Shown here in pieces: positions 39,923 through 55,578 of a DNA stretch of 64,000 bases; position 1 is the first letter of the stretch, and each line of letters begins with the position of its first letter. Under the pieces are notes generated by a model. The model had not been told where the DNA came from. It did no database searches and worked only from the letters and a program-made list of their open reading frames with translations. The translations under genes and the position numbers were made by a program. Location: assembly GCF_029016485.1 (NCBI RefSeq), contig NZ_CP092106.1, positions 434,001 through 498,000 on the forward strand, given 5' to 3'. Source of the stretch: Vibrio sp. JC009. GTDB taxonomy: Bacteria > Pseudomonadota > Gammaproteobacteria > Enterobacterales > Vibrionaceae.

Positions 39923-41335
39923 TTATAAAGACAAGAAGTCTTTCATCTGTTTTAGCACTTTCTCAGCCGTTGCCTTATCTTCCATTTCAGAAAAAATTCT
40001 CAGCAGCGGTTCTGTGCCTGAGAAGCGTGCGATAACCCAGCCTCCGTTCTGGAAGTAGACTTTAAGACCATCGGTATAGCTGACCCGCTCGATTTTATGC
40101 TCAAATTGCGGAAGCTGTTTTTCAACATAGAGTTTATTATACAAAGCCTCCTTCTCCTCCGGTTTAAAAGTACAATCGCCTTCGGCAGTGTAGGCATAAC
40201 CGTATTTTGAGTAGATCTCATCAAGCAGTTCAGAGAGTTTCTTTCCGGTCACGCTGATCATTTCCACCAGAAGGCTTGAAGCAAATACGCCATCTTTGCC
40301 CTTAATATGCCCGCGAATTGTCAGGCCGCCGGAGCTTTCTCCGCCAATCAGGGAGTTATCTTCTTCCATCTTTGAGCTGATATGCTTAAAGCCTACGGGA
40401 ACCTCAAAGCTCTTTTCTCCGTAATCTGACGCTATCCTGTCCAGAATATGGGTGGTGGCGATATTGCGAACCACTGAGCCTTCCCATTTTTTGTATTCCA
40501 GCAGGTAGTAATAGAGCAGAATTAGCACCTCATTGGGATGGATAAAGTTCCCCTTTTCATCAATGATGCCCAGCCGGTCTGCATCTCCGTCGGTACCTAT
40601 ACCGATATCGTAGCCTTCATGGGCAACCAGATGTTTTAAGCGGTAAAGCGTTGCGGCGCTGGGGGAGGGCATCAGGCCACCAAAGGCCGGGTTTTCTCCG
40701 TCATTGATAACATCCACTTCGCAGCGGCCTGCAATCAGGACGGTTTGCAGGGCGTTCTTTGCCACACCAAACATAGGATCGATAAGCACCTTCAGGTTTG
40801 CCTGTTTGATCGAGTCAGTATCAATAAAGTCGATGACCGAATCCACAAACTCGTTCATTGGGTTGATAACCTGGATCTTTGCGCTGGAAACCGCAGTTTT
40901 AAAATCCATGCAGCGGATATCACTCTGGCAGATGGAAGCGACCTGAACTTCGATCTTTTCGGTGATCACCTCGTCAGCATCCCGGCCTCCTTCAGTAAAG
41001 ATCTTAATACCGTTGTAGTCAGCCGGGTTATGAGAAGCGGTAATGCAGGCAGAATAAGCGCACTTCATCTCCCTGGCTTTAAACATCACAATGGGGGTCG
41101 GGACAAAGTTACCGATAAAGCTGACGGTTATCCCGTTAGCAGTCAGCACCTCAGAAAACCACTTCGCAGCTTTATCTGACAGAAAGCGGCGGTCATAACC
41201 GATAACAAAACCGCGGTCTGCTACCTGTTCGGCATTGATAATATTAGCCATTGCCTGGGCCACGACTCTGACATTATCTCTGGTGAACTCCTCACCAATA
41301 AAGGCTCTCCAGCCCCCGGTGCCAAATTTGATCAT
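39923..41335 (-). CDS. Hexose-phosphate mutase of the chitobiose operon
   Basis: This 470-residue member of the alpha-D-phosphohexomutase superfamily has the phospho-Ser motif ACITASHNPADYNG, the metal loop GTDGDADRLG, the sugar loop GGESSGGL and the phosphate site FSGTEPLLRI. In the vibrio chitobiose operon it lies next to the phosphorylase that releases GlcNAc-1-phosphate. The likely reaction is therefore conversion of GlcNAc-1-P to GlcNAc-6-P. That substrate is inferred from context; the family also includes phosphogluco- and phosphomannomutases. It ends the operon. Confidence 0.88.
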   Translation of the reverse strand: MIKFGTGGWRAFIGEEFTRDNVRVVAQAMANIINAEQVADRGFVIGYDRRFLSDKAAKWFSEVLTANGITVSFIGNFVPTPIVMFKAREMKCAYSACITASHNPADYNGIKIFTEGGRDADEVITEKIEVQVASICQSDIRCMDFKTAVSSAKIQVINPMNEFVDSVIDFIDTDSIKQANLKVLIDPMFGVAKNALQTVLIAGRCEVDVINDGENPAFGGLMPSPSAATLYRLKHLVAHEGYDIGIGTDGDADRLGIIDEKGNFIHPNEVLILLYYYLLEYKKWEGSVVRNIATTHILDRIASDYGEKSFEVPVGFKHISSKMEEDNSLIGGESSGGLTIRGHIKGKDGVFASSLLVEMISVTGKKLSELLDEIYSKYGYAYTAEGDCTFKPEEKEALYNKLYVEKQLPQFEHKIERVSYTDGLKVYFQNGGWVIARFSGTEPLLRIFSEMEDKATAEKVLKQMKDFLSL

Positions 41336-41346
41336 TTCCGGTCTCC

Positions 41347-43752
41347 TTAGCCCATAGTCACGCTGATATAGTTGACACTTCCCTGTGCCTGAGGAGCGAT
41401 AGCTCCCGTCACTTCAGTCCCGTTTAGCGTGACTTGTTTTACACCCTTACTGACGTTGTCGGGATTCTTTACTTCAATATGGTATGTCGCTCCGCGCCAC
41501 TCACGCTGGACCTCAAAGCCTGGCCACTCTTTTGGAATACATGGGTCAATAATCAGGCCGTCAAAGCTTAATCTCACACCCAGAATATGGTTGGTTGCTG
41601 CAATATATGCCCAGCCGGAAGTGCCGGTCAGCCATGGGTGGTTCGCTCTGCCATGATCCTGATGGTCTTTGCCCATAATGAACTGAACATAAGAGTATGG
41701 TTCGGTGATGCGGGTTTCGATCATCTCGTTCTGGTTATACGGATTCAGGGCGTCGTAGAACTTCATTGCCCTGTCTCCCCGGCCAAGCTTAGCTTCAGCA
41801 ACCCAGGCCCATGGGTTAGGGTGCGAGAAGATGGCGCCGTTCTCTTTTACTCCCTGATAGACACGGGTAACAAAGCCGATATCATCATCTGGTGTGGCAA
41901 AGGAAGGGGCATTCAGATGCAGTCCGTAGTCTGAATAGAGATATTCATCGACTGCGTTCATGGCTTTTGTGCCGCGCTCTTCTGAAACCGCACCGGAAAC
42001 TACTGCCCAGGTGTTTGATTCAAGATGAACCTTGCCTTCCTCCTGTTCACTGGTTCCGATTTTTTCTCCGTTTTTCGTGATGCCACGGATATACCAGCCA
42101 CCTTCTTCATCCCAGAGGTGAGTTTCACAGACATCTTTTACTTTATTTGCCATGGCCTGATAGCGGGTAACATCTTCGCCTCTGCCAAGGTAACGGGCCA
42201 GATGGACAAACTCATTGAGTGACCAGTAATGCAGGAAGGAAACCATGGATGACTCGCCACCACCAAGGTTCAGGCAGTCATTCCAGTCAGCTCTCAAACC
42301 CTTTGCTACCCCGGTTTTGCCTACATGTATGTCGGTAAACTCCAGCGCTGCTTTCATATGATCATAAACGCAGGCTTCGCCGCCATCGGCATAGGGAATC
42401 ACCTCGTCAAAGAACTTCGTCTCGCCAGTCTCCATCACATAGCGGCAGATGGTCGGGATCAGCCAGAGGTGATCGTCTGAGCAGGTATCATCAATGCCGT
42501 GGATCTTATCTTCATCACCTGGTGTCGGTACAACGGTTGGTGACTTTGAAGGCTCAACACTGGCTTTTTCAGGATCAAACCAGTCGGGATCAAAAAGATG
42601 CAGGCCATAACCGGCTTTTACCTGACCGCGAAGCAGATCCACAATTCGCTTTCTGGTCATTTCAGGGTTGGAGTGAGGAACGGCCATGGCATCCTGAGCG
42701 GTATCCCTGTAACCAAGGCCGGTTCTTCCTCCCACTTCAATAAAAGAGGCGAAACGGGACCAGACCACACAGGTCTCGGCCTGATAAAGTGTCCAGGCGT
42801 TAATCATGGTATCCAGCCCTTTGTTCGGGGACTTCACCTGAAACTTACTGCAACGCTTATCCCAGTGAGCCTTGATATCGTTAAAGGCCTTATCAATATT
42901 CTCCGGATTCTGATATTTGTTTCTTAATCTTTCTCCATTGCCTTTGCCTAGCCCTAGAATAAAGGCAAAGCGCACCTCTTCACCCGGCTGGATAACAAAC
43001 TGCTTATGCAGCGATCCGCACTGGTTGTAACAGGTTTGAGTCTGGTTTGAACAATGTCCTTTCTCCACTGCAACCGGGTTGGACTCATCCCGGTACAGGC
43101 CAAGGAAGTTATCTCTCTGACCATCGTAGCTGTCAGGCGTGAAGGTGGAAGCCAGATAGTAAAAGCCTTCAAACTCGTCTGTGTTGTAGAAAAGATCGTA
43201 TTCAATCACCCCTTCTCTGTATTCCGTGCCGCCGGAATAAAGTGACATCTGATGGTTCTGATTGTCGGAAGCGATATGGCTGAAGGAGAACTCAACAAAA
43301 GAGAAAGCACTGATGGTTCTTGGTTTATCTGAATTGTTTTTAATCACCAGATCCCAGACTTCGGCATCTTCGCCCTTTGGCACAAACAGAGTTTTGGTTG
43401 CGGTTATACCGCTATAGTCACAACGGAATTTTGAATAGGAGAGGCCATGACGAACTTCGTAGTCAGCCTCTTCAAGGCTCTTTGCCACCGGCTGCCATGA
43501 AACAGACCAGTAATCGCCGCTCTCATCATCTCGCAGATAGACATAGTGTCCCGGACGGTCAAAGGGTGCATTAGGGCGGAACTTGGTTACCCGGTTGTAT
43601 TCCGGTGAATTATAGAATGAGTACCCTCCGGCGTTCTGCGAGATTACCGTGCAGAATTTTTCCGTGCCCAGATAGTTCGTCCACGGAGCCGGCGTGTCCG
43701 GCCTGGTGATAACATATTCGCGATTTTCATTGTCGAAATAACCGTATTGCAT
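41347..43752 (-). CDS. chbP: N,N'-diacetylchitobiose phosphorylase (GH94)
   Basis: This cytoplasmic enzyme splits (GlcNAc)2 with phosphate into GlcNAc and GlcNAc-1-P, saving ATP. The 801-residue protein closely resembles the structurally known Vibrio proteolyticus enzyme from its start (MQYGYFDNENREYVITRPD) to its end. The catalytic acid lies in RADWNDCLNLGGGESS; by codon count this Asp is residue 492, the same number I recall for the V. proteolyticus catalytic Asp. It follows the GH9 gene by 58 bases, whereas V. cholerae has two more genes in between. Confidence 0.97.
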   Translation of the reverse strand: MQYGYFDNENREYVITRPDTPAPWTNYLGTEKFCTVISQNAGGYSFYNSPEYNRVTKFRPNAPFDRPGHYVYLRDDESGDYWSVSWQPVAKSLEEADYEVRHGLSYSKFRCDYSGITATKTLFVPKGEDAEVWDLVIKNNSDKPRTISAFSFVEFSFSHIASDNQNHQMSLYSGGTEYREGVIEYDLFYNTDEFEGFYYLASTFTPDSYDGQRDNFLGLYRDESNPVAVEKGHCSNQTQTCYNQCGSLHKQFVIQPGEEVRFAFILGLGKGNGERLRNKYQNPENIDKAFNDIKAHWDKRCSKFQVKSPNKGLDTMINAWTLYQAETCVVWSRFASFIEVGGRTGLGYRDTAQDAMAVPHSNPEMTRKRIVDLLRGQVKAGYGLHLFDPDWFDPEKASVEPSKSPTVVPTPGDEDKIHGIDDTCSDDHLWLIPTICRYVMETGETKFFDEVIPYADGGEACVYDHMKAALEFTDIHVGKTGVAKGLRADWNDCLNLGGGESSMVSFLHYWSLNEFVHLARYLGRGEDVTRYQAMANKVKDVCETHLWDEEGGWYIRGITKNGEKIGTSEQEEGKVHLESNTWAVVSGAVSEERGTKAMNAVDEYLYSDYGLHLNAPSFATPDDDIGFVTRVYQGVKENGAIFSHPNPWAWVAEAKLGRGDRAMKFYDALNPYNQNEMIETRITEPYSYVQFIMGKDHQDHGRANHPWLTGTSGWAYIAATNHILGVRLSFDGLIIDPCIPKEWPGFEVQREWRGATYHIEVKNPDNVSKGVKQVTLNGTEVTGAIAPQAQGSVNYISVTMG

Positions 43753-43810
43753 TGAAACTTCCTTCTAGATGTTCTTTTTCAGTTGTTTTTGTTGATTAAA
43801 AATCAGGGAA

Positions 43811-45523
43811 TTACTCTCTTGTTGAACAGGTAAACTGGCAGATAACGGCGAGCAGGAACCAGGCTCCGTGGGGGATCCATTGCTCTCCCCAGCGCCAGTT
43901 TTGCAGCATGTCATCTTTCTGTTTCTCCGGGTTAAAGGCGATATCTTCCTCGTCTTCAAAACCTGCGGTGATTCCGTTGCAGATCCCTCCTTTAGCATTG
44001 TTAAAGCCCTGGTGAGGGAGGTAGTCCGGGTTGTTATGACCGTGCCCGTCCAGCATGCAGATATCGAAAGGGTTAAGGCCGGTAATCCAGTTCAGTGCAT
44101 TCTGCGCATAATCTGACAGCGTTTTTTCTAACCTGAGAGAAGGAACGGCTTCGGTTGCCAGATAGGCGGCGCAGGCCAGAGAAGCCAGCCGGGCGTTTTC
44201 CCCCTGCCACCAGTAACCGGACTCATTGTCCTGAGCAATAAAAAACGCCTCGCGCTTATTGCCCGAAACTGACTTAACGTACTGCCTTGGATAACCAAAG
44301 GGATTGATGACCTTTTGAGTTACTGTGAGCTCAAAGATCATGGCAACCCCGACTTTTGATTTTATTGATTTTTTTATTTCTTCATCGGTTTCGATTGCAA
44401 GATATTCACAAAGAGCGATAACCGGCATGCCCGCTTCCGAGGCATGAAAATAGGGACGAGAGCCGTCATGGTTTGCTGACCAGTAATATGAAAACTGATT
44501 ATCTGTGTGCTGGCGTCTGGCAAGCCTTGCCGCCCATTCCCGGGCTTCAGTCAGATAACAACTTTTTTCTGTCGTGCGGTAGAGTTCCACGCAGGCTAAC
44601 AGAGCGCAGTACTCATCGATGATATTTTCTTCACCATCGGGCAGGTAGCGCAGGTTATTTTCTCTCAGATGCCGGTAGCCTTTTTCGGCGCATTCCAGAT
44701 AGGTTTTCTGGCCGAATTCGCCGTGATAAATAAAACGGGCAGCAGATGCCAGAGCAGCAATTGCAACTCCACCCCCTTGGCGAAACGCTGCCTCAAAATC
44801 GTCGGATTTAATGCCCTCCTGAGTTGAGTAACAGCAAAGCTCCCGCTGCTTGCTGTCTTTACTCCACTTATCAAACACTGTCATATAGAAAAAGCCGGAT
44901 GGATCCTGCATGCGAACCAGAAAATCCGCGCCATGCAAAGCTTCTTCCAGAAGACGGCTTTTCAGAAAAGGCGGGAAATCAGTTTTACTGTCAAGCAACT
45001 GATGACCCTTCAGCATATTCCAGACAACCATTGGCGTTTGCTGAGGGTTCAGGTAATTGGCATAAGAGAGGTGACTCAGGTACTTACTCACATCTCCGGA
45101 TGCATCGTACCAGCCGCCTCTTGCATCAATGCACAAATCGCTATCCAGCAGAGGTACATTTTTATCCTGCTGTTCATAGATCCCGCCGCAGCGTTGAGAT
45201 TTAAAATAGTGAAGGAGATCTGAGAAGGTGTGCGTAATCAGCACATCTTCATCAATAATAAACACGTGAGAACGGGCCTCTCCCACAGCCAGATAGTAGG
45301 ATCCTTTTTCAGTCCAGCGTGAGAGATCTATGCTGTAGAAGAGACCGCAGTGCCAGTTGGCCACTCTGCCCTGATAGAGCAGATCAAACTCAGCGACGCA
45401 CTCCTTACTTTCCCCCGAAATAAGTTGTGCGGTTAATGGCTGAGTCAGCTTTTTACCGGTCATGAGAATGGCTTTTTTCTCTCCCGTCAATTCATAACCT
45501 ATGTGGTTGGTTAGCAGCTGCAT
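43811..45523 (-). CDS. Glycoside hydrolase family 9, probable exo-beta-glucosaminidase
   Basis: The 570-residue protein has an N-terminal Ig-like domain (TNHIGYELTGEKKAILMTG) and a GH9 catalytic domain with the Asp motif GGWYDASGDVSKYLSHLSY near residue 137 and a C-terminal GITAGFEDEEDIAFNPE segment where the acid Glu is expected. No signal peptide is seen, so it acts in the cytoplasm. Homologues in this operon are often labelled endoglucanase, but a Photobacterium member was shown to be an exo-beta-D-glucosaminidase. The likely substrate is a glucosamine-containing disaccharide, by inference. Confidence 0.85.
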   Translation of the reverse strand: MQLLTNHIGYELTGEKKAILMTGKKLTQPLTAQLISGESKECVAEFDLLYQGRVANWHCGLFYSIDLSRWTEKGSYYLAVGEARSHVFIIDEDVLITHTFSDLLHYFKSQRCGGIYEQQDKNVPLLDSDLCIDARGGWYDASGDVSKYLSHLSYANYLNPQQTPMVVWNMLKGHQLLDSKTDFPPFLKSRLLEEALHGADFLVRMQDPSGFFYMTVFDKWSKDSKQRELCCYSTQEGIKSDDFEAAFRQGGGVAIAALASAARFIYHGEFGQKTYLECAEKGYRHLRENNLRYLPDGEENIIDEYCALLACVELYRTTEKSCYLTEAREWAARLARRQHTDNQFSYYWSANHDGSRPYFHASEAGMPVIALCEYLAIETDEEIKKSIKSKVGVAMIFELTVTQKVINPFGYPRQYVKSVSGNKREAFFIAQDNESGYWWQGENARLASLACAAYLATEAVPSLRLEKTLSDYAQNALNWITGLNPFDICMLDGHGHNNPDYLPHQGFNNAKGGICNGITAGFEDEEDIAFNPEKQKDDMLQNWRWGEQWIPHGAWFLLAVICQFTCSTRE

Positions 45524-45736: not shown

Positions 45737-46729
45737 TTATTCAAACAAGTAACAACGCACAAAATGGTTGTCGGACAACTTAGTTACTCCTGGTAACTGT
45801 TCTTTACAGCGGGCTGTTGCATGTATGCAGCGGCCGGCGAAAGGGCAGCCTGTGGAGTCAGGTGTCCAGAGCGGGATCTCTCCCTTATTGCCTTTGAGCT
45901 TTTCGTGGATCGACTTTTTAGGATCCGGAACGGCGGAAACCAGAAGCTGGGTATAAGGGTGCTGTGGATCGTGAATGATCTCTTCCGTATCTCCCCATTC
46001 CACCATATGGCCCACGTACATTACCGCCAGATCTTCCGCGATATAGCGGGCTGTGGCGATATCGTGAGTGATGTAGAGCAGAGACATCTGCTTCTCAAAT
46101 TTCATCTCTTCCATCAGGTTCAGAACCCCGGCCCGGATAGAGACATCCAGCATAGAAGTTGGCTCATCGGCCAGAACCACCTCAGCGCCCACAGCGATAT
46201 TGCGTGCAAGGTTTACCCGCTGGCGCTGACCACCGGAAAGCTGGTGCGGGTACTTAGCTGCCGTTTCCTTTGGCGGGATAAGACCCACCTGTTCCAGTAG
46301 ATCATAAACCCGCTCCTGCAGCTCTTTTTTGTTCCCCTTCGTCACCTTCTTGTGGATCAGAAGCGGTCTGGCGATATGGTGGAATATGGTGTGGGTCGGA
46401 TTGAGTGAACCGAAGGGATCCTGCCAGACCATCTGCACGCCTTCGCGGTACTTCATCAGGTCTGCACGCTTCTGAATTGTCTGGATATCACGGCCCTTGT
46501 ACTCGATATGCCCGCCGGTGGGGGCGTACATCCTGGCGATCATCTTAGCCGTAGTTGACTTGCCTGAACCGGATTCCCCGACAACAGCCAGACCCCGGCT
46601 TTTATACATTCTGAATGACACATCATTAATTGCGCGCATCATAGGCTGCTTTAGTGCGTTGCTGGTGATAGGAAAATCCTTAATCAGGTTATTACCTTCA
46701 ACCAGCAGTTCGCCGAAATGGTTACTCAT
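45737..46729 (-). CDS. Chitooligosaccharide ABC transporter ATPase (OppF-like)
   Basis: The 330-residue ATPase has Walker A VVGESGSGKSTTAK, signature HQLSGGQRQRVNLARNI, Walker B VLADEPTSMLD, the switch region LYITHDIATARY and the Opp/Dpp C-terminal extension with a Cys pattern (TGCPFAGRCIHATARCKEQLP) that can hold an Fe-S cluster. It is the partner of the next ATPase gene upstream in the operon. In V. cholerae the same genes import chitin disaccharide. Confidence 0.95.
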   Translation of the reverse strand: MSNHFGELLVEGNNLIKDFPITSNALKQPMMRAINDVSFRMYKSRGLAVVGESGSGKSTTAKMIARMYAPTGGHIEYKGRDIQTIQKRADLMKYREGVQMVWQDPFGSLNPTHTIFHHIARPLLIHKKVTKGNKKELQERVYDLLEQVGLIPPKETAAKYPHQLSGGQRQRVNLARNIAVGAEVVLADEPTSMLDVSIRAGVLNLMEEMKFEKQMSLLYITHDIATARYIAEDLAVMYVGHMVEWGDTEEIIHDPQHPYTQLLVSAVPDPKKSIHEKLKGNKGEIPLWTPDSTGCPFAGRCIHATARCKEQLPGVTKLSDNHFVRCYLFE

Positions 46730-46757
46730 AGTTATCTCCTCAAATTCCCGTTACTGT

Positions 46758-47756
46758 TTACACTTGTGCCAGAGCTATCTGCTCGCCATACAGGTGGCAG
46801 TTGGAGAAGCGGTTCGGCTTAATTTGTCTTAGTTGTGTCGTTTGCTGACGGCATATCTCGCTGACTTTTTCGCATCGCGCCTGAAAACGACACCCCTGCG
46901 GAATTTCAAGTAAATTAAGCGGATTGCCGGGAATACCCGTCAGCTTGGTCTTTGGTCCTGTTAACGGAGGGAACGAGCTTCCCAGACCTTTGGTGTACGG
47001 GTGATAAGGGCTTTCAAGAATATCCTTTGAAGGTGCGACTTCTATCAGTTCACCTGAATACATGATCCCGATACGATCCGAGAACTCCACCATCAGAGAA
47101 AGGTCATGGGTGATAAACATAATCGAGAACCCGAACTCTTCTTTCAGCGCATAGATTTTTTGCAGAATCTCCCTCTGAACCACCACATCCAGCGCCGTTG
47201 TCGGTTCATCCATAATGATCATCTTCGGATTCAGGGCCAGAGCAATGGCGATCACCAGACGCTGACGCATACCACCTGAGAACTGGTGCGGATAGTCAGT
47301 TAAACGGCTTGGATGAATATCCACTATTTCCAGCAGACCTTCCGCCCGGCTTTTCGCCTGCTGGCGGGTCATACTGGTGTGACGCATAATCACATCACAG
47401 AATTGCTCTTCCATGGTCAGAACCGGGTTCAGCGCATTCATTGCACTCTGGAAAACCATGGACATCTCACTCCAGCGGAATGACTGCATTCTGGCATCGC
47501 TGTATTTAAGGATATCCTCACCGTTGAAGAACACTTCTCCTCCGGTGATAAACGCTGGTGGCTTATGCAGCCGCATCAGTGAAAAGGCCACGGTGGATTT
47601 ACCGCATCCGGATTCACCGGCCAGACCGAAAACCTCACCTTTACCAATATCGAAACTGATATTGTTGCAGGCACGGACATCACCGGCGTCAGTGATATAG
47701 TCGACGCACAGATTACGGATTGAAATTAACGGATTAGTCATAGGGTTACTCTCCAT
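46758..47756 (-). CDS. Chitooligosaccharide ABC transporter ATPase (OppD-like)
   Basis: The 332-residue ATPase has Walker A LAGESGCGKSTVAF, signature HQFSGGMRQRLVIAIAL, Walker B IIMDEPTTALD, the switch His in MFITHDLSLM, and the oligopeptide-type C-terminal region with Cys residues (GCRFQARCEKVSEICRQ). It overlaps the upstream permease gene by 11 bases, so the two are translationally coupled. Confidence 0.95.
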   Translation of the reverse strand: MESNPMTNPLISIRNLCVDYITDAGDVRACNNISFDIGKGEVFGLAGESGCGKSTVAFSLMRLHKPPAFITGGEVFFNGEDILKYSDARMQSFRWSEMSMVFQSAMNALNPVLTMEEQFCDVIMRHTSMTRQQAKSRAEGLLEIVDIHPSRLTDYPHQFSGGMRQRLVIAIALALNPKMIIMDEPTTALDVVVQREILQKIYALKEEFGFSIMFITHDLSLMVEFSDRIGIMYSGELIEVAPSKDILESPYHPYTKGLGSSFPPLTGPKTKLTGIPGNPLNLLEIPQGCRFQARCEKVSEICRQQTTQLRQIKPNRFSNCHLYGEQIALAQV

Positions 47757-48771
47757 CCCATAGTTCTTTACGCTGAGGGAATAGTTCTGGTTGGCGCTCT
47801 TGCTTGTCTTTTTTTGCCATCTTCTTCCAGCGTTTCATTCCCTTGTGGGAGCGAAGCTGAGGGTTGGCAATTTCATCGACAGCGAAGTTAAGCAGGGCAA
47901 GGCCGGTAACAAGCAGTGTCAGGGACAGACACGGAGCAAGCAGTTCCCACCATGCGCCGATTAGCATGGAAGATGACGTCTGTACGTTGTACAGCATGAT
48001 GCCCCAGCTGATGGTGTTCGGGTCGCCCAGACCAAGGAAGGAAATGGTCGCTTCCATCATGATGGCGTACATCACCGAGCCGATAAAACTGGCGCCCACA
48101 ATGGAGATCAGGTTTGGCAGTATTTCCACAAAGATGATGCGCCATGACTTCTCACCAAGTACTTCGGCCGCTTTAACAAACTCCTTTTCACGCAGGGCAA
48201 GAGTCTGTGAGCGGATGACCCTTGCGCCCCAGGCCCAGGAGGTACAGCCGATAATCAGAGCAATAGTGAGCGGCCCGGCTTCACCGATAAAGGCGGCAAC
48301 CACAAACAGCAGCGGGTACTGAGGAATCACCAGCATAATGTTCATAGCAGCGGTAAGAAAATCATCCACCCGTCCGCCAAAGTAACCGGCTGAAACGCCA
48401 ATGACAGTTGCCAGAAAACAGACGGTCAGGCCTGCACCAAAACCAACGGCAAGTGAAACCCTTGCACCGTACGCCACCTGAGACCAGATATCGCGCCCCA
48501 TGCGGGAAGTGCCCAGCACATGATCGGCTTCTTTCGACATATGCATTGTGCGGCGGTCGGTGGCAAGGCTCTGCGCCACCCATCCGTCCGGATTACCTTG
48601 CGCACTCTTGACCACAAAGGCCGGATATTCGTGTGGGTTACCGCTCCGCTTGTCCGGAGCGTGCTTGGTGATTAAAGGCGCGGCAAGCGCAATAAAGATA
48701 AATATGCCCAGTATAGATACGCCGGTCAGCGCCATACGGTTACCCAGAATTAGCTTAATAAAACCTTTCAT
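47746..48771 (-). CDS. Chitooligosaccharide ABC transporter permease (OppC-like)
   Basis: The 341-residue inner-membrane protein has an N-terminal membrane segment (MALTGVSILGIFIFIALAAPLI), a periplasmic stretch, then five more segments. The EAA loop is ALREKEFVKAAEVLGEKSWRI. It ends in a lysine-rich cytoplasmic tail. It is 2 bases after the OppB-like gene. Confidence 0.94.
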   Translation of the reverse strand: MKGFIKLILGNRMALTGVSILGIFIFIALAAPLITKHAPDKRSGNPHEYPAFVVKSAQGNPDGWVAQSLATDRRTMHMSKEADHVLGTSRMGRDIWSQVAYGARVSLAVGFGAGLTVCFLATVIGVSAGYFGGRVDDFLTAAMNIMLVIPQYPLLFVVAAFIGEAGPLTIALIIGCTSWAWGARVIRSQTLALREKEFVKAAEVLGEKSWRIIFVEILPNLISIVGASFIGSVMYAIMMEATISFLGLGDPNTISWGIMLYNVQTSSSMLIGAWWELLAPCLSLTLLVTGLALLNFAVDEIANPQLRSHKGMKRWKKMAKKDKQERQPELFPQRKELWDGE

Positions 48772-48773
48772 AA

Positions 48774-49760
48774 TTATTTGCCTCCCTTACGCAGGCGAGG
48801 GTCAAGAACCACATAAAGCATGTCTGCCAGCAGGTTAAAGCAGAGCATAAACAGCGTCATAATCAGCAGTTGTCCCTGAAGAACCTGATAGTCACGGGCT
48901 GTGATGGCGTTAAACAGAACAGTGCCAAGACCCGGATAGTTAAAGATAATTTCGATAATCAGCTGACCACCGATAGCCATGCCCAGAGACATGGACAAAG
49001 CAGTTACACTTGGCAGCAGAGCGTTTCTGGCGGCGTAGTTAAAGACCACCCGGTTTTCGCTCAGGCCCTTACCCTTTGCCATGGTGATATAGTCTTCAGC
49101 CAGCAGGTTGATCATGTTGTTACGCATGTTCACCAGAAAGCCGCCAATCTGAACGACAGATGCACAGAAAAGAGGAAGCACAGCGTGATAGGCAACGTCT
49201 TTAATAAATGCCCAGCTAGTCCAGTCAGGCGTGCTGCCTGGTGTATAGGCATAGCCGGTCGGGAACCATTTAAAGCCGATGGCAAAGACAAACATCGCCA
49301 GCATAGCGATAACCACCTGAGGAACCGCCTGAATAATCAGAGTGCCCGGTGTGACCATGGCGTCGTATTTACTGCCCCGCTTCCAGGCGGCAAATATGCC
49401 CAGGATGGAACCTATGGAGAAGGAGATAACCACAGCGGTGCCGGCAAGGAACAAAGACCAGCCAAAGGCACTGCCCAGAAGTTCGTTTACGCTTAGCGGA
49501 TAAAACTTAATTGAGGTACCCAGCTCCCAGCTCAGGATGCTTTTCATATAGGTCAGGTACTGCATCCAGATTGGACCGTCGACAAAACCAAGAAGCTGTT
49601 TCATAGCTTCAATACGTTCCGGGGTAACCTGTGTGGTCGCATTGGCGAACATCATGGTGACCGGATCGCCCGGCATGGCCCGGGGGATAATAAAATTCAG
49701 TGTTGCGGCGACAAGCAGCGCAATCAGATAAAAAGAGAGTCGTCTCAGAAAATAACCCAT
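48774..49760 (-). CDS. Chitooligosaccharide ABC transporter permease (OppB-like)
   Basis: The 328-residue inner-membrane protein has the OppB/DppB start (MGYFLRRLSFYLIALLVAATLNFIIPRAMPGDPV), six membrane segments and the EAA loop EDYITMAKGKGLSENRVVFNYA. It is the first gene after the binding protein, 148 bases downstream of it. Confidence 0.94.
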   Translation of the reverse strand: MGYFLRRLSFYLIALLVAATLNFIIPRAMPGDPVTMMFANATTQVTPERIEAMKQLLGFVDGPIWMQYLTYMKSILSWELGTSIKFYPLSVNELLGSAFGWSLFLAGTAVVISFSIGSILGIFAAWKRGSKYDAMVTPGTLIIQAVPQVVIAMLAMFVFAIGFKWFPTGYAYTPGSTPDWTSWAFIKDVAYHAVLPLFCASVVQIGGFLVNMRNNMINLLAEDYITMAKGKGLSENRVVFNYAARNALLPSVTALSMSLGMAIGGQLIIEIIFNYPGLGTVLFNAITARDYQVLQGQLLIMTLFMLCFNLLADMLYVVLDPRLRKGGK

Positions 49761-49908: not shown

Positions 49909-51567
49909 TCAGTTCACTGGTTTAAGGTCCAGCACATGAAGCAGACGCTCCGGAATACCGGCCCAGATATTTGGACGGCCCTGAGGGTTTTCTTCATTCC
50001 ACCATCCGGTAAAGCGGGTGGTGTTGTACTGATACATATTGGCACCGGAGAGAACCGGAATCGTCACCTGATTTTCAGCGATGATTCTCTGAATGCCGTG
50101 GGCAATCTTCATCTGCTCACCTTTGTCAGCCGTTTTGTAGAAGCTGTCCAGCAACTGATCCAGTTTGTCATTCTGGAAGAAGTGCATGGCAAAGCGCGGC
50201 ATGCCTTCACCTTTCTGAAGTGCTGAGCTGTAGCCACTGTGCCAGTACTTGTGCGGGTCTGCACCGTGGAAGTAGTTGGTGTAAGCGACATCGTAAGTTG
50301 CGTCCAGCATCGCCTGGTTATATACCGCAAACTCAGGAGTACGGGCGCGCGCCTTAATACCGGCTTCGTTTAGCTGTTCAACGGCAAGCTGCACTGTGTT
50401 GTTAAAGTCAGTCCAGCCGTTTGGTGACTGAATCAGCAGCTCAAAAGTCTTTCCTGATGGCGTTTCAACAAAGCCATCTTTGTTGATGTCTTTAAATCCG
50501 GCTTTTGCCAGCAGATCCTTCGCTCCTTGTGTGTCGTAGGTATTAAATTTCTTGAATTTCTCATGGGTATCCTTATCTGACCAGGCTTCAAATGCGTAGC
50601 CAAGGCCGGATGCAAAGTCATTGACTGTGCCACCGCCATAGAAGGCGATATCAATAATGGTCTGGCGATCCAACGCCATAGAGAAGGCGCGGCGGAAATC
50701 CACATTGTTCAGGGCTTCATGCTTAGCCGGATCAGGGTTTTTGTAGTTAACCACAAATGCCTGAGTACCGGATGCCGGATACCAGTAGTGATGGTTCGGG
50801 CTGGCTGCGGCATAGGTGCGGTCGATATCCGGCACAAATGAAGAGGTCCAGTCCAGTTCTGAGTTTACGATTTTACCCAGCAGCTGATCGTTGTTGGCAA
50901 TCTGAGGCACGCGCAGACAATCAACCTTCAGGCTCGCATTATCCCAGTAGTTCGGGTTGCGGCACTGAATGTAGAGCTGCGGAGTAAAGGTGTCGATTTC
51001 GGTAAAAGGACCTGTACCCACCGGCTGCTCATTGGTGAAGGTTGTCGGGTCTTTTACCTCTTTCCAGATATGTTTAGCGACAACCGGAACATGAGACATT
51101 TCGTACGGGACATTTGAGTTTTCTTCTGTCAGCTTAAACTCAACCTTATGAGCATTGACTTTGTTAACGGACTTAATCCATTTGTTGATGCCGCGCTGGT
51201 CCAGCTCTGGTTTTTGCTCCAGAAGCTTATAGGAGAAGACAACGTCATCTGCAGTGAAGGCTTTACCGTCAGACCATTTTACCCCCTTGCGAAGGTCAAA
51301 AGTCACGGTCATCAGGTCATCCGACATAGAGAAGTTTTCTGCCAGACGCATAACCGGCGTATTGCCGTGCATCTCATTGAAAACCACCAGAGGTTCATAG
51401 ATAAAGTCGGTTGTGGTGCGAAGGTTAGTTGCAAGATAGGGGTTAAAGTTTCTAACCATAGTCGGATAGAAGTCGGGTACGATGGTTAGCTCACTTCTGG
51501 CTAGAGCCTGAGCTGAGACGCTTGTAGCTGCAATGACAGTTGTTGCAACGATCGTCTTTTTAATCAT
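49909..51567 (-). CDS. Periplasmic chitin oligosaccharide-binding protein (CBP)
   Basis: This cluster C (Opp-type) solute-binding protein delivers (GlcNAc)n to the ABC importer. In V. cholerae, CBP without ligand also holds the sensor ChiS inactive. From MIKKTIVATTVIAATSVSAQALA (signal peptide) it is 552 residues; an ATG three codons earlier is also possible. Family features include DFIYEPLVVFNEMHGNTPVMRLAENFSM, LRKGVKWSDGKAFTADDVVFSY and the C-terminal NEENPQGRPNIWAGIPERL. The gene heads the operon behind a long regulatory region with CRP and SlmA sites. Confidence 0.94.
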   Translation of the reverse strand: MIKKTIVATTVIAATSVSAQALARSELTIVPDFYPTMVRNFNPYLATNLRTTTDFIYEPLVVFNEMHGNTPVMRLAENFSMSDDLMTVTFDLRKGVKWSDGKAFTADDVVFSYKLLEQKPELDQRGINKWIKSVNKVNAHKVEFKLTEENSNVPYEMSHVPVVAKHIWKEVKDPTTFTNEQPVGTGPFTEIDTFTPQLYIQCRNPNYWDNASLKVDCLRVPQIANNDQLLGKIVNSELDWTSSFVPDIDRTYAAASPNHHYWYPASGTQAFVVNYKNPDPAKHEALNNVDFRRAFSMALDRQTIIDIAFYGGGTVNDFASGLGYAFEAWSDKDTHEKFKKFNTYDTQGAKDLLAKAGFKDINKDGFVETPSGKTFELLIQSPNGWTDFNNTVQLAVEQLNEAGIKARARTPEFAVYNQAMLDATYDVAYTNYFHGADPHKYWHSGYSSALQKGEGMPRFAMHFFQNDKLDQLLDSFYKTADKGEQMKIAHGIQRIIAENQVTIPVLSGANMYQYNTTRFTGWWNEENPQGRPNIWAGIPERLLHVLDLKPVN

Positions 51568-51798
51568 GGTAAGCATAGCTGTTCCTTACTATTTGGATTC
51601 ATTATTTCCTGACCTTGCTACCTAAGCTCTCCTTAACCGGATAACTCAGTGGCCTGTAGCCCTGGTCCGTAAGTAAGAAAACATCTTGCTGCTAATTTGG
51701 TCAATTAGCGGTTCCGTTAATAACGTCAAAATGGTTTTCTGTTACGTAAAAAACGTTAAAAATGGTGCAATTTATTGGTTTGTATAGAGAAAAGCTTG

Positions 51799-51838: not shown

Positions 51839-51850
51839 GTGAGTGCTCAC
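51839..51850. promoter_or_regulatory. SlmA-binding site
   Basis: GTGAGTGCTCAC differs by one base from the SlmA palindrome GTGAGTACTCAC. In V. cholerae the nucleoid-occlusion protein SlmA directly activates the chb promoter together with ChiS, so the position upstream of this operon is meaningful. Confidence 0.7.
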
Positions 51851-52074: not shown

Positions 52075-52209
52075 ATGAAATTGTCTGTTATTGCTCTGAT
52101 GGCTGCTCTGTTTCTGGCAGGTTGTTCCAATACCTGGCAAGGTGTAAAGGATGACTCGTCTAAGATCTGGAAGGATACGAAAGAAGCTATCCATGAGGCT
52201 ACAGAGTAG
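52075..52209 (+). CDS. Small (44-residue) lipoprotein
   Basis: An ORF of 44 codons with ribosome binding site AAGGAAAG starts MKLSVIALMAALFLAGC. The hydrophobic stretch and lipobox LAGC are a lipoprotein signal, leaving a mature peptide of about 28 charged residues (CSNTWQGVKDDSSKIW...). It resembles entericidin-like lipoproteins. A small gene at the same place between the binding protein and chiS also exists in V. cholerae, as far as I recall. Function unknown; it may be an envelope stress or toxin-like peptide. It converges on chiS with 24 bases between stops. Confidence 0.75.
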   Translation: MKLSVIALMAALFLAGCSNTWQGVKDDSSKIWKDTKEAIHEATE

Positions 52210-52233
52210 CCATCATACATAGCTTCTGAGGCG

Positions 52234-55200
52234 TCAGATAAGTTTGGCTAACTGGCTTCTTAGCTGCTCAAGCTCTTTGCGCTGGTCTGTATCCTGGTCT
52301 GCGCATTTATCCAGAATATAGTCCAGAGAGCTGAGGACGGTGCGCCACCTTGGGGTTTTTGGCAGGGTTTCCAGTCTGAGGTATTTGTCCAGCGTACGGG
52401 TCTGCAGAGTGCTTCTGTCCAGATAAACCCGCCACAGACCGCTGGCTTCAGCAAAGTCGAACTTGCTTTTGCCTGTGGAGGTTTCCCAGTAGCCGATGGC
52501 TGTTGTCATTGCAGCAACCAGCAGCTCTCGGAGTTGTTGCTGTTTATCCTGAGCGTTTCCGCTGACCTTCTGCACCACTTCCTTAAACTCATCGCCCAGA
52601 TTCTGAAGCTGTTCCAGTTTGTCCTTATCTCCCTCGCAGGCGTAGGAAGAGAGTACTTCAACCGCGGTTTCCAGGCTGTGTATCCTTTCGCTGCTGGCAG
52701 ACTTTCCGCTATCAAAGATAAACAGCAAACGGATACCTGAGCTTTCTGGAAGCGTAATAATATCGCCCGGTATTTTTCGTTGCCGGTCACCGGTGAAGAT
52801 TTCTATATCGCCGCTGTATTGATCCGTCAGCATGTAGCAGTACTTTCTGGCGATAAGCTCGTTCAGGTGGGAGCGTGTAAGCTGGCCGGCGGTCTTTTTG
52901 AAAAGCATAGATGCAGCCTGATTAGCAAAGATAACCTTATCTTCCAGGTTAACGCAGAGGATAGCTTCCTGTGTGGAGTCCAGCCTCTCAAGCAGGGTTT
53001 TCTGGGCCATGAGCAGCTCTGTTTCTGTGATTTTCTGGCTTTCAACCTCCTGTTGCAGCTGGTGGTTTTCTAAAAGGCTGGTTTGCGTTTTACCGGCTGC
53101 CAGATTGGTGGAAACTCTTGCGGTCAGCTCCTGCTTGCTAAAGGGTTTTATCAGATAATCATTGGCTCCGGACCCGAACCCTTTTGTTCTTTCTTCCGTT
53201 TGATTTTGAGAAGTGAGCATAATGACAGGCAGCTCTGCCTGGCTGAATTCGTTGCGAATTGATTCACAAATCTCATAGCTGCTGATCCCCGGAAGCATAA
53301 TGTCCAGCAATAAGATTTCCGGCTGCTCTTCCTGTATCTGTTTTAGCACTTCACATCCTTCAGAGGAGGTGATTACGCGGTAGCCTTCATAGCGTAAAAA
53401 GCTTTCAACCACCTGGAGAGTCACAGGGTTTGCGTCGGCCACCAGGATAAGCGGTCCGTCACTGTTTTCAGGAAAAGCGGAGCTATCAGGCTCTGGCTGC
53501 TTTGGTATTTCAGGCAGCTGAAAGTGAACCGGGTGAGTTTCCTTTGCCAGTTCCGAGTTATCTTCAGAAGCCAGAGGCAGGCTGAAGCTGAAGGTTGTTC
53601 CAACATATGGCTGACTGCTGATATAAAGATTACCGCCCATTAACTCAATTAGCTGATAGCTGATGGAAAGGCCGATCCCGGTTCCCTGCCTGAATTTGTC
53701 AGCATGTTCCAGGTATTGCGGCGGGATCCCCTGGCCGGTATCCACGATCTGTACTCTGACATGGTGATTTAAAGCCGTGGCTGAAATGACGATCTTACCC
53801 TCATGAGTGTATCTGACAGCGTTGCCGATAAGGTTGTAGAGAACCTGCTCGAGCCTTTCCGGATCGGCGGAGATTTTGGGCAGTTCGTCCGGGATCTGGT
53901 TCAGAATACGGATTCGTTTTCCCTTCAGAAGATGGCCGGATAACTGCAAAACCAGGCTGGTGGCAGAAAACAGATCCGTTGCCTGTTTATTTATCTCCAT
54001 ATGACCATAACGCATCTTATGATAATCCAGCAGGTCATCAACCAGATTAGACAGGCGCTTGCCGCTATTTATGATGATCTCTAACTGGTATTTCTGATGG
54101 GCCGGAACAGAGCCGATGGAACCTGAGGCCAGTGCTTCTGCGATTCCTATAATTCCGTGAAGCGGCGTTCGCAACTCATAGGAAGTGGAGGCCAGGAATT
54201 CGTCCTTGAGTTTATCTGCCTGCTGAAGCTCCAGGTTTTGCTGGCGGATAAGTCTGAGATTTTTTTCCAGCTCATCATTTTGTTTACCTATGGTGAGTAT
54301 TTTTTCCCGGATAGACGCGCGCATCCTTTCAAAGCTGACAGCCAGACGGCCTATTTCATCGGTTCTGTCGGTGCTGAGCATATTGTGTTCCAGTTCGCCT
54401 GCTGAGACTTTTTCTGCTGCCCAGGTTAGTTTAAGCAGCGGGTCGGTTATAAAGCGGGACAAAAAATGCGAAGCGATAACCACAAGTGCAAATGCCAGAA
54501 GCATAGCGGCAATAAAGACTTTTTTCAGATGATGAACTCTGGCATAGGCGACATCTTCTGAAAGCTGAACCGAGAGCGCCCAGTTTAGTCCCATAAAGGA
54601 AACCGGAGCGGATGCTGCTATTATTCTTTCGCCTTTGGAGTTGGTGTAAGTATTTACTTCTGTAATACCCTTCAGAGCGCGGTTTACTGCGTACTGGTTG
54701 TTGTTAATGTCTTCCTGAGCGAGTGAAGAGGATCTTGAAGTCAGGTCAGAGCCGGTAAGCAGGAGCTGAAGCGCATCGCTGTTGTCATCAACCAGCACAT
54801 CGATTCCCTCAAGCGGGAGGCGGAACAGGGCATAGCTGTGCAGATAGCCTTGCTGAACAATCGGAGCGGCAAACCATGCATAACTATTTTCGTGCTCTGC
54901 TGAAAAATCAGAGATAACCACAGGAAGTGTTTCATCCGGCCTGCTCTGATATGAATTCATTTCCTTCCGGATTCTCAGAAAAGTGATTCCCAGATTGGTG
55001 CTCTTGTAGTTATCGCTTAGCAGGTTCGCTCCAATATTGTCACTTTTTAGTGTTGAATAGGCGACGTTCCCTTCAAAGTCGACCAGGAGAATATCGTCAA
55101 AATCAGAGCGTTTGAGATGTTCCACATAACCTCTGTGGTATCTCTTGTGCAGCAGACGGTATCTTTCTGTGCTGGTGTAGTCCTTAGACTTTTTATTTAC

Positions 55201-55578
55201 CGAGGTCTTTATTTTATCTCCGGAGCCAGTGATATAGCGCTGCTTAAGATTTGTCCGCGCCTCTTCAATATCAGAGCCAAGCAGCCGGAAGGCCTTGACC
55301 AGACCATAGAAGCGTCCGCCACTGGCATAGGCAAGCTCTGAGCGGACGAAACCGGAAACCTCGGTTCTTTTGGCTTCAAAATAGTCCAGTATCTGTTGCT
55401 GTTTGGTGTCCCGCACCGACACCAGATACGAGTGGCTCTGCTCCTGCAGATCTTTGCTGTGGGAGTGGAGAAAAAAGAGGGCAATTAAGGTGAGGGGAAT
55501 CAGGCTCAGAGTCAGAAAAGCTGTCATCAGTGTGTTGCGAAGCTTCTTAAATAGGTTCTTTTTTCTCTTTTTAATCAT
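52234..55578 (-). CDS. chiS: Chitin sensor ChiS, hybrid kinase with Tyr at the phospho-His site
   Basis: ChiS is the membrane regulator of chitin use; in V. cholerae it binds DNA directly through its C-terminus. The 1114-residue protein has TM1 (about 17-38), a large periplasmic sensor, TM2 (about 353-375), HAMP (375-430), HisKA (458-525), ATPase (DTGQGIP, GTGIGLSI), a receiver (about 708-830), a PAS-like region and a C-terminal domain. In the H-box the codon TAT at 54180-54178 gives FLASTSYELRTPLHG, with Tyr467 where His is expected. Thr471 and the receiver Asp759 (LLLDIMLPG) are kept, while the receiver acidic pair reads LVADANP (Asp715, Ala716). The protein is otherwise full length. Confidence 0.95.
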   Translation of the reverse strand: MIKKRKKNLFKKLRNTLMTAFLTLSLIPLTLIALFFLHSHSKDLQEQSHSYLVSVRDTKQQQILDYFEAKRTEVSGFVRSELAYASGGRFYGLVKAFRLLGSDIEEARTNLKQRYITGSGDKIKTSVNKKSKDYTSTERYRLLHKRYHRGYVEHLKRSDFDDILLVDFEGNVAYSTLKSDNIGANLLSDNYKSTNLGITFLRIRKEMNSYQSRPDETLPVVISDFSAEHENSYAWFAAPIVQQGYLHSYALFRLPLEGIDVLVDDNSDALQLLLTGSDLTSRSSSLAQEDINNNQYAVNRALKGITEVNTYTNSKGERIIAASAPVSFMGLNWALSVQLSEDVAYARVHHLKKVFIAAMLLAFALVVIASHFLSRFITDPLLKLTWAAEKVSAGELEHNMLSTDRTDEIGRLAVSFERMRASIREKILTIGKQNDELEKNLRLIRQQNLELQQADKLKDEFLASTSYELRTPLHGIIGIAEALASGSIGSVPAHQKYQLEIIINSGKRLSNLVDDLLDYHKMRYGHMEINKQATDLFSATSLVLQLSGHLLKGKRIRILNQIPDELPKISADPERLEQVLYNLIGNAVRYTHEGKIVISATALNHHVRVQIVDTGQGIPPQYLEHADKFRQGTGIGLSISYQLIELMGGNLYISSQPYVGTTFSFSLPLASEDNSELAKETHPVHFQLPEIPKQPEPDSSAFPENSDGPLILVADANPVTLQVVESFLRYEGYRVITSSEGCEVLKQIQEEQPEILLLDIMLPGISSYEICESIRNEFSQAELPVIMLTSQNQTEERTKGFGSGANDYLIKPFSKQELTARVSTNLAAGKTQTSLLENHQLQQEVESQKITETELLMAQKTLLERLDSTQEAILCVNLEDKVIFANQAASMLFKKTAGQLTRSHLNELIARKYCYMLTDQYSGDIEIFTGDRQRKIPGDIITLPESSGIRLLFIFDSGKSASSERIHSLETAVEVLSSYACEGDKDKLEQLQNLGDEFKEVVQKVSGNAQDKQQQLRELLVAAMTTAIGYWETSTGKSKFDFAEASGLWRVYLDRSTLQTRTLDKYLRLETLPKTPRWRTVLSSLDYILDKCADQDTDQRKELEQLRSQLAKLI

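What the first reader, a model, noticed from the sequence alone, without database searches (positions are those of the whole stretch)
54178..54180. ChiS has Tyr467 in place of the phospho-accepting histidine
The H-box reads FLASTSYELRTPLHG. In every active histidine kinase of this type the Tyr position is His (V. cholerae ChiS His469). The codon is TAT, one transition from CAT. The rest of the kinase is intact, Thr471 of the E-x-x-T phosphatase motif is kept, and receiver Asp759 is kept. V. cholerae work shows ChiS works as a direct DNA-binding activator whose kinase activity is dispensable and whose phosphatase activity matters. This strain would be a natural version that cannot autophosphorylate: a one-component membrane transcription factor evolving out of a hybrid kinase.
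Basis: partly seen in the sequence, partly recalled or inferred. Interest (0 to 1): 0.85.

Follow-up and report, generated by a model that had tools for sequence, protein, structure and literature searches.

The report
Chitin sensor with a dead kinase
A marine Vibrio carries a chitin-sensing regulator whose built-in enzyme has lost its key working parts while its sensing and DNA-binding ends are kept, which suggests a switch that has evolved to work without passing on phosphate.

Summary
In detail: codon 54178-54180 (minus strand) gives Tyr467 where ChiS has its phospho-accepting His. It is not a lone change. The protein also lacks 11 residues between the G1 and G2 boxes (F-box and part of the ATP lid) and half of the receiver's Mg-binding acid pair (D716A, E717N). 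So 'the rest of the kinase is intact' is wrong, and a sequencing error or single recent mutation is very unlikely. All 195 other genus genomes with a hit at E <= 1e-180, and 30 of 30 sampled from sister genera, have His. Among 171 orthologues compared, the window is the extreme outlier at near-invariant kinase and receiver columns (19 deviations; next highest 4). Its DNA-binding domain deviates at 0 of 34 such columns and, like the sensor half, shows a branch length like its sisters'. The chb operon and paired promoter repeats follow, but the genome has no GH18 or GH20 hit. Best reading: a natural ChiS pseudokinase, working as a membrane one-component regulator with a dead transmitter. Closest analogue: DivL, also Tyr for His. 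Main rival: decay of the chitin pathway. Known from one genome.

The parts
52234..55578 (-). chiS, hybrid-kinase-type membrane regulator, 1114 aa
   Evidence: Pfam HAMP, HisKA, HATPase_c, Response_reg; full-length orthologues at 49-61% across the genus
54178..54180 (-). codon of Tyr467 in place of the phospho-accepting His
   Evidence: His in 195 of 195 other genus genomes
53701..53703 (-). residue 626, just 3' of the point where 11 residues (F-box and part of the ATP lid) are missing, i.e. after residue 625
   Evidence: lid columns I, F, E, P, L, Q present in 194-195 of 195 orthologues
53428..53433 (-). residues 716-717 (Ala-Asn) where orthologues have Asp-Glu: receiver acid pair broken
   Evidence: D716 in 194 of 195 and E717 in 194 of 194 orthologues with a letter there
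53302..53304 (-). Asp759, receiver phospho-acceptor position, kept
52237..52551 (-). ChiS-type DNA-binding domain (about residues 1010-1114); the five residues reported critical for DNA binding in V. cholerae are kept (R1055, R1061, K1065, R1077, R1079)
   Evidence: mapping; PMC8092284 passages; sequence match to PDB 7kpo over residues 1011-1114; 0 of 34 near-invariant columns deviate
51715..51756 (-). two repeats ACGTTNNTNACG, 30 bp apart (51756-51745 and 51726-51715), upstream of cbp: candidate ChiS-binding sites of P_chb
   Evidence: same pair and spacing in 36 of 55 relatives searched; equation with the published sites is inferred
51839..51850 (-). GTGAGCACTCAC, SlmA-site-like palindrome in P_chb
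   Evidence: SlmA consensus recalled, not from a call; SlmA role at P_chb in PMC5519180 (passages)
49909..51576 (-). periplasmic binding protein (CBP-like), 85% identical to that of G066 (V. hannami-like)
45737..49760 (-). two permeases and two ATPases of the ABC importer
39923..45523 (-). GH9-like, GH94 phosphorylase and phosphohexomutase genes; the BadF-type kinase and GH20 genes that lie between GH9 and GH94 in G066 (V. hannami-like) are absent

Best explanation
This is a vertically inherited ChiS whose phosphorelay core has decayed: it is a pseudo-histidine-kinase that senses CBP-bound chitin oligosaccharide in the periplasm and passes the signal mechanically through HAMP, the HisKA coiled coil and the rest of the cytoplasmic part to the C-terminal DNA-binding domain. 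That domain activates the adjacent chb operon from paired promoter sites. Shown by sequence: loss of the His at 467, of the F-box/lid segment and of the receiver acid pair; preserved sensor, DNA-binding domain and promoter repeats. Inferred: no autophosphorylation, a receiver that stays unphosphorylated, DNA binding controlled by conformation (CBP, and possibly EIIA-Glc) alone.
For: H-box lesion unique among 195 genus and 30 family orthologues. Eleven-residue in-frame lid deletion and D716A/E717N/G767S in the same protein. Outlier test: 19 deviations at near-invariant HisKA/CA/REC columns against a maximum of 4 among 170 other orthologues, with only 1 in sensor plus DNA-binding domain (14 if the deletion is counted once). 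Branch-length ratio to its sisters: sensor 0.97, DNA-binding domain 0.94, but HAMP+coil 2.46, HisKA 2.28, CA 1.71, PAS 1.81, REC 1.27. Relative-rate counts, outgroup majority 0.5, both sisters: everything from HAMP to PAS 75 against 30 (p 1.3e-5), the two ends 17 against 14 (p 0.72). All five DNA-binding residues kept. Promoter repeats kept. Open reading frame of 1114 codons although synonymous sites are saturated against the V. hannami-like gene. Same locus, and same nearest relative by ChiS tree and by HemL.
Against: The direct contrast of middle and ends is only borderline (Fisher p 0.12, 0.09, 0.018 at the three thresholds with both sisters). The receiver alone shows 17 against 11 changes, and at the 0.8 threshold the sensor shows 8 against 2. 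One genome, no close relative with Tyr. The chitin pathway is reduced here (no GH18, GH20 or BadF-type kinase hit), so weakened selection on the whole system is possible. HisKA is still 81% identical to the V. hannami-like gene, so either the loss is not old or the coiled coil keeps a structural role. No expression or binding data. The V. cholerae phosphorylation model is recalled.
Confidence: 0.74

Rival explanations
1. Pathway decay: the lineage is abandoning chitin, chiS is under relaxed selection throughout and will become a pseudogene; the transmitter simply broke first.
For: No GH18 and no GH20 hit in the genome; two chb genes lost. Other Vibrio genomes appear to have lost ChiS altogether: of 31 genus genomes without a hit at 1e-180, 18 were looked at again and 16 had none at 1e-60. 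At the 0.8 threshold the sensor too shows 8 against 2 changes.
Against: DNA-binding domain and sensor have branch lengths like the sisters', with 0 of 34 and 1 of 59 near-invariant columns changed; the ABC importer and CBP remain 85-94% identical to G066; promoter repeats intact. G066 (V. hannami-like) and G005 also lack a GH18 hit yet keep His, so chitinase loss alone does not break the kinase.
Confidence: 0.17
2. Phosphatase-only or receiver-relay form: the protein no longer makes phosphate but its receiver is phosphorylated by another kinase or a small phospho-donor, and Thr471 still removes it.
For: Glu468, Thr471, Asp759, Thr789 and Lys811 are kept; RetS, LadS and GacS show kinase cross-talk (passages of PMC12189002).
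Against: D716A/E717N remove half of the Mg-binding acid pair, and the lid is deleted; the receiver is among the altered domains (6 of 38 near-invariant columns).
Confidence: 0.06
3. Sequencing or assembly artefact at codon 54178-54180.
For: One codon, one genome, no reads available.
Against: Assembly of 3 contigs at completeness 100; further lesions in two other catalytic sites, including an in-frame 11-residue loss; 28 of 29 readable HisKA domains of the genome have His.
Confidence: 0.02
4. Tyr467 is itself a phospho-acceptor, giving a tyrosine-phosphorylating ChiS.
For: DivL, with Tyr in this place, was once described as a tyrosine kinase (title seen in the reference list of PMC12189002).
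Against: DivL showed no autokinase activity in vitro (passages of PMC4211667); here part of the lid needed for ATP handling is also missing.
Confidence: 0.01

Closest known systems
ChiS of Vibrio cholerae
   Same: Same domain order, same five DNA-binding residues, and the HAMP-region residues W388 and I429 (here W386 and I427) kept (passages of PMC8092284, and PMC10208484); both linked to the chb operon
   Different: V. cholerae ChiS keeps His469, full lid and acid pair; the window protein has lost all three
DivL of Caulobacter (pseudo-histidine kinase with Tyr550)
   Same: Tyr in place of the phospho-accepting His; catalytic function lost, fold kept as a signalling module (PMC4211667 passages)
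   Different: DivL acts within the DivK and CckA circuit and its described parts are PAS domains plus the kinase module; its Tyr is conserved across alpha-proteobacteria with one exception. Here Tyr is known from one genome and the output is a fused DNA-binding domain
ChrS pseudokinase of laboratory-evolved Corynebacterium glutamicum
   Same: Catalytic-domain loss turns a histidine kinase into a pseudokinase (PMC9491836 abstract and passages)
   Different: A laboratory frameshift acting through a separate response regulator; here a natural, in-frame change in a protein with its own DNA-binding domain
Transmembrane transcription regulators, including hybrid ones
   Same: Membrane-anchored direct regulators; 8.4-9.2% carry histidine-kinase or receiver domains (PMC10269533 passages)
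   Different: The transmitter here is a recognisable but broken kinase, possibly an intermediate state

Membership tests
ChiS orthologue | Locus upstream of the CBP and chb operon | tested here: met
ChiS orthologue | Sensor, HAMP, HisKA, ATPase, receiver and C-terminal ChiS DNA-binding domain in one protein | tested here: met
ChiS orthologue | Tree position with ChiS of its species relatives | tested here: met
   Sister to HN007 and V. hannami, support 100/99; HemL also nearest to G066
Active HisKA histidine kinase | Phospho-accepting His | tested here: not met
   Tyr467
Active HisKA histidine kinase | N, G1, F and G2 boxes with ATP lid | tested here: not met
   N, G1 and G2 recognisable; F-box and part of the lid deleted
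Phosphorylatable receiver domain | Acid pair, Asp, Thr and Lys | tested here: not met
   Asp759, Thr789, Lys811 kept; second acid of the pair is Ala716
Bifunctional HisKA phosphatase | E-x-x-T motif | tested here: met
   Glu468, Thr471; activity itself not testable
Pseudo-histidine kinase (DivL-like) | Acceptor His replaced in an otherwise recognisable HK fold | tested here: met
   HisKA and HATPase_c above Pfam cut-offs; the model keeps strands and helices of the ATPase domain, 10-residue blocks at pLDDT 70-86 except 39-67 over 611-640
Pseudo-histidine kinase (DivL-like) | No kinase activity measured | not testable with these tools
   Needs purified protein
One-component transmembrane regulator | Direct DNA binding by the membrane sensor itself | tested here: inconclusive
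   DNA-binding residues and promoter repeats kept; binding not measured

The most novel reading that the evidence does not exclude
A natural end-point of the hybrid-kinase to one-component transition: a chitin sensor whose kinase, ATP lid and receiver were all released from selection while sensor, DNA-binding domain and operator sites stayed constrained, so the transmitter now serves only as a mechanical rod in a DNA-binding membrane protein.
Probability: 0.6. Interest if true: 0.72.

Novelty: new variant of a known kind. Interest (0 to 1): 0.62.

Why it matters
All 225 other ChiS genes examined here at the H-box (195 genus, 30 family) keep the His although V. cholerae ChiS acts by binding DNA directly, so what the kinase is for is an open question. 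A natural orthologue that has lost three phosphorelay sites but kept sensor, output and operators makes that question testable: compare it with its nearest His-bearing relative. It would also be a clear natural case of a hybrid kinase turning into a membrane one-component regulator, with DivL as the only Tyr-for-His precedent met in my paper searches.

Tried and rejected
Single recent mutation or sequencing error: rejected as main explanation because two further catalytic sites are damaged. Generally fast-evolving or horizontally acquired gene: disfavoured by synteny, tree and the sister-like branch lengths of sensor and DNA-binding domain. General decay of kinases in this genome: 28 of 29 readable HisKA domains have His. 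Chitinase loss as the direct cause: relatives without a GH18 hit keep His. dN/dS dating failed because synonymous sites are saturated against the V. hannami-like gene. The search for related loci on genome contigs returned only 8 loci, 4 of them Vibrio ChiS. A third repeat match at 7941-7930 is what chance would give in 64 kb by my estimate. The AlphaFold model of the whole protein is of middling confidence (mean pLDDT 72.8, pTM 0.39); no fold search was run on it. Paper searches: no listed title or abstract start described a natural ChiS with Tyr for His; only the listed top results were seen, and most subscription papers are not held.

Full report
WHAT IS THERE. The minus-strand ORF 52234-55578 encodes 1114 residues with HAMP, HisKA, HATPase_c and receiver domains. 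Its last 104 residues match PDB 7kpo, deposited as 'Response regulator'; that this entry is the ChiS DNA-binding domain is recalled. Residue 467 is Tyr, codon TAT, at 54178-54180. On a V. cholerae ChiS (P0090, its extra 48 N-terminal residues subtracted) this is His469; Thr471 is Thr473 and Asp759 is Asp772. It is the only full-length ChiS in a 5.21-Mb, three-contig genome. Several searches used the reference 52234-55575, which drops Met1 and leaves 1113 residues; numbering here is of the full protein.

HOW UNUSUAL IS THE TYR. Of 227 genomes of the genus, 196 including the window's own have a ChiS hit at E <= 1e-180. I took the locus from all 195 others: 195 of 195 have His, in the motif TTSHELRTPL. 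Pieces of two further genomes with fragmentary genes were left out of this count; where they cover the site they read His as well. Of 95 other-genus genomes of the family with a hit, I took 30 over eight genera: 30 of 30 have His, the F-box letters FEP and the receiver acids DDE. All 119 other listed proteins of a 286-hit protein search, itself limited to the 7994 candidates sharing most words, have His. In the window's own genome 28 of 29 readable HisKA domains have His (the best 30 of 52 hits were fetched, one failed the pattern).

IT IS NOT THE ONLY LESION. At columns at least 99% conserved among the other orthologues, the window deviates in HisKA at 3 of 40 (T464S, H467Y, M476I), in the ATPase domain at 10 of 45, in the receiver at 6 of 38 and in the PAS region at 5 of 27, but in the sensor half at 1 of 59, in HAMP at 1 of 23, in three linker or coil segments at 0 of 19 and in the DNA-binding domain at 0 of 34. 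The ATPase deviations include an in-frame loss of 11 residues after residue 625 that removes the F-box and part of the ATP lid (IFEPL..Q). The receiver deviations include D716A, E717N and G767S; by recalled CheY numbering, 716 is the second acid of the Mg-binding pair. In a leave-one-out test, each sequence was compared with orthologues under 75% identical to it; 171 of 196 rows could be tested, the rest being too short or having too few such partners. The window has 19 deviations in HisKA, ATPase and receiver; the next highest is 4 and the median of the others is 0. Counting the deletion once leaves 14. One other locus, L216, also lacks Asp in column 716, but it was fetched only to about residue 672 of the query, so this is probably an effect of the alignment's end. 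L073 shows 34 deviations in the DNA-binding domain because only its first open piece was in that test.

WHERE THE CHANGE FALLS. A maximum-likelihood tree of 38 rows puts the window sister to Vibrio sp. HN007 and V. hannami (support 100/99; L073 of genome G066 is nearly identical to the V. hannami protein). HemL also makes G066 the nearest genome, 93% against 87% for the next. With the topology fixed, the window's branch relative to the mean of its two sisters is 0.97 for the sensor half and 0.94 for the DNA-binding domain, but 2.46 for HAMP and coil, 2.28 for HisKA, 1.71 for the ATPase domain, 1.27 for the receiver and 1.81 for the PAS region; 1.24 overall. Relative-rate counts point the same way: from HAMP to PAS 75 window-only against 30 sister-only changes (p 1.3e-5), the two ends 17 against 14 (p 0.72), at outgroup majority 0.5 with both sisters. 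Against this: the direct contrast is weaker (Fisher p 0.12, 0.09 and 0.018 at thresholds 0.5, 0.8 and 0.95), the receiver alone is 17 against 11, and at 0.8 the sensor is 8 against 2. The ATPase fold itself seems kept in the model: strands and helices are there, with 10-residue blocks at pLDDT 70-86 over 571-670 except 39-67 over 611-640, where the lid is cut (modest overall confidence).

OUTPUT AND TARGETS. [quoted passage not shown] passages of PMC8092284) are all present, as R1055, R1061, K1065, R1077, R1079. Between chiS and cbp lie two ACGTTNNTNACG repeats 30 bp apart at 51756-51745 and 51726-51715. The same pair with the same spacing is in 36 of 55 relatives searched (1400 bases after chiS each); 13 show one copy near there and 6 none under this strict pattern. 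A palindrome like a SlmA site lies at 51850-51839. That the repeats are the published ChiS sites is inferred: the paper speaks of two sites within 60-bp probes.

METABOLIC SETTING. The chb operon follows: CBP, two permeases, two ATPases, GH9, GH94, phosphohexomutase, 71-94% identical to the G066 proteins. The BadF-type kinase and GH20 genes that stand between GH9 and GH94 in G066 are absent, and no copy was found elsewhere in the genome (GH20; kinase, a search without a positive control of its own). GH18 gave no hit, whereas 183 of 227 genus genomes have one; G066 and G005 also have none but keep His. So this is probably a non-chitinolytic Vibrio that scavenges chitin oligosaccharides, and chitinase loss by itself did not break the kinase in its relatives.

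MECHANISM. Most likely the protein cannot autophosphorylate and its receiver is not phosphorylated in practice. By the recalled abstract of Klancher et al. 2020 (not held), phosphorylation diminishes ChiS DNA binding, so such a protein would sit in the binding-competent state and be gated by CBP, the sensor and perhaps EIIA-Glc, which in V. cholerae inhibits ChiS directly (passages of PMC10208484). Shown: the lesions, their concentration and what is conserved. Inferred: loss of activity, regulation by conformation alone.

COMPARISON AND VERDICT. It remains a ChiS by locus, architecture and descent. It fails defining features of an active histidine kinase and of a normal receiver. It works most like a pseudo-histidine kinase: DivL has Tyr550 in the same place, showed no kinase or phosphatase activity and binds an ATP analogue weakly (passages of PMC4211667). 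What is new is the combination with a DNA-binding output in a natural gene.

Noticed in passing
43752-43811: The chb operon lacks the BadF-type kinase and GH20 genes found at this junction in G066 and downstream of GH9 in G159 (named by Pfam) and, by size and place only, in G112; the whole genome gave no GH20 and no GH18 hit.
   Followed up: partly
L073 (genome G066): chiS of this V. hannami-like assembly is frameshifted near residue 984, splitting off the DNA-binding domain, while the listed V. hannami protein P0003 is intact; assembly difference or strain variation.
   Followed up: no
genus-wide: Of 31 genus genomes without a ChiS hit at 1e-180, 18 were looked at again and 16 have none at 1e-60; ChiS seems lost in several lineages.
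   Followed up: no
L252: In genome G005 (ChiS like the V. albus protein) no listed ORF of the chb region matched the two ABC ATPases, and none of the BadF kinase's size stands between GH9 and GH20.
   Followed up: no
52076-52220: A short + strand ORF read by eye between chiS and the chb promoter looks like an entericidin-type small lipoprotein.
   Followed up: no
51715-51756: The ACGTTNNTNACG pair with 30-bp spacing is present in 36 of 55 relatives searched and could be used to look for further ChiS targets.
   Followed up: partly
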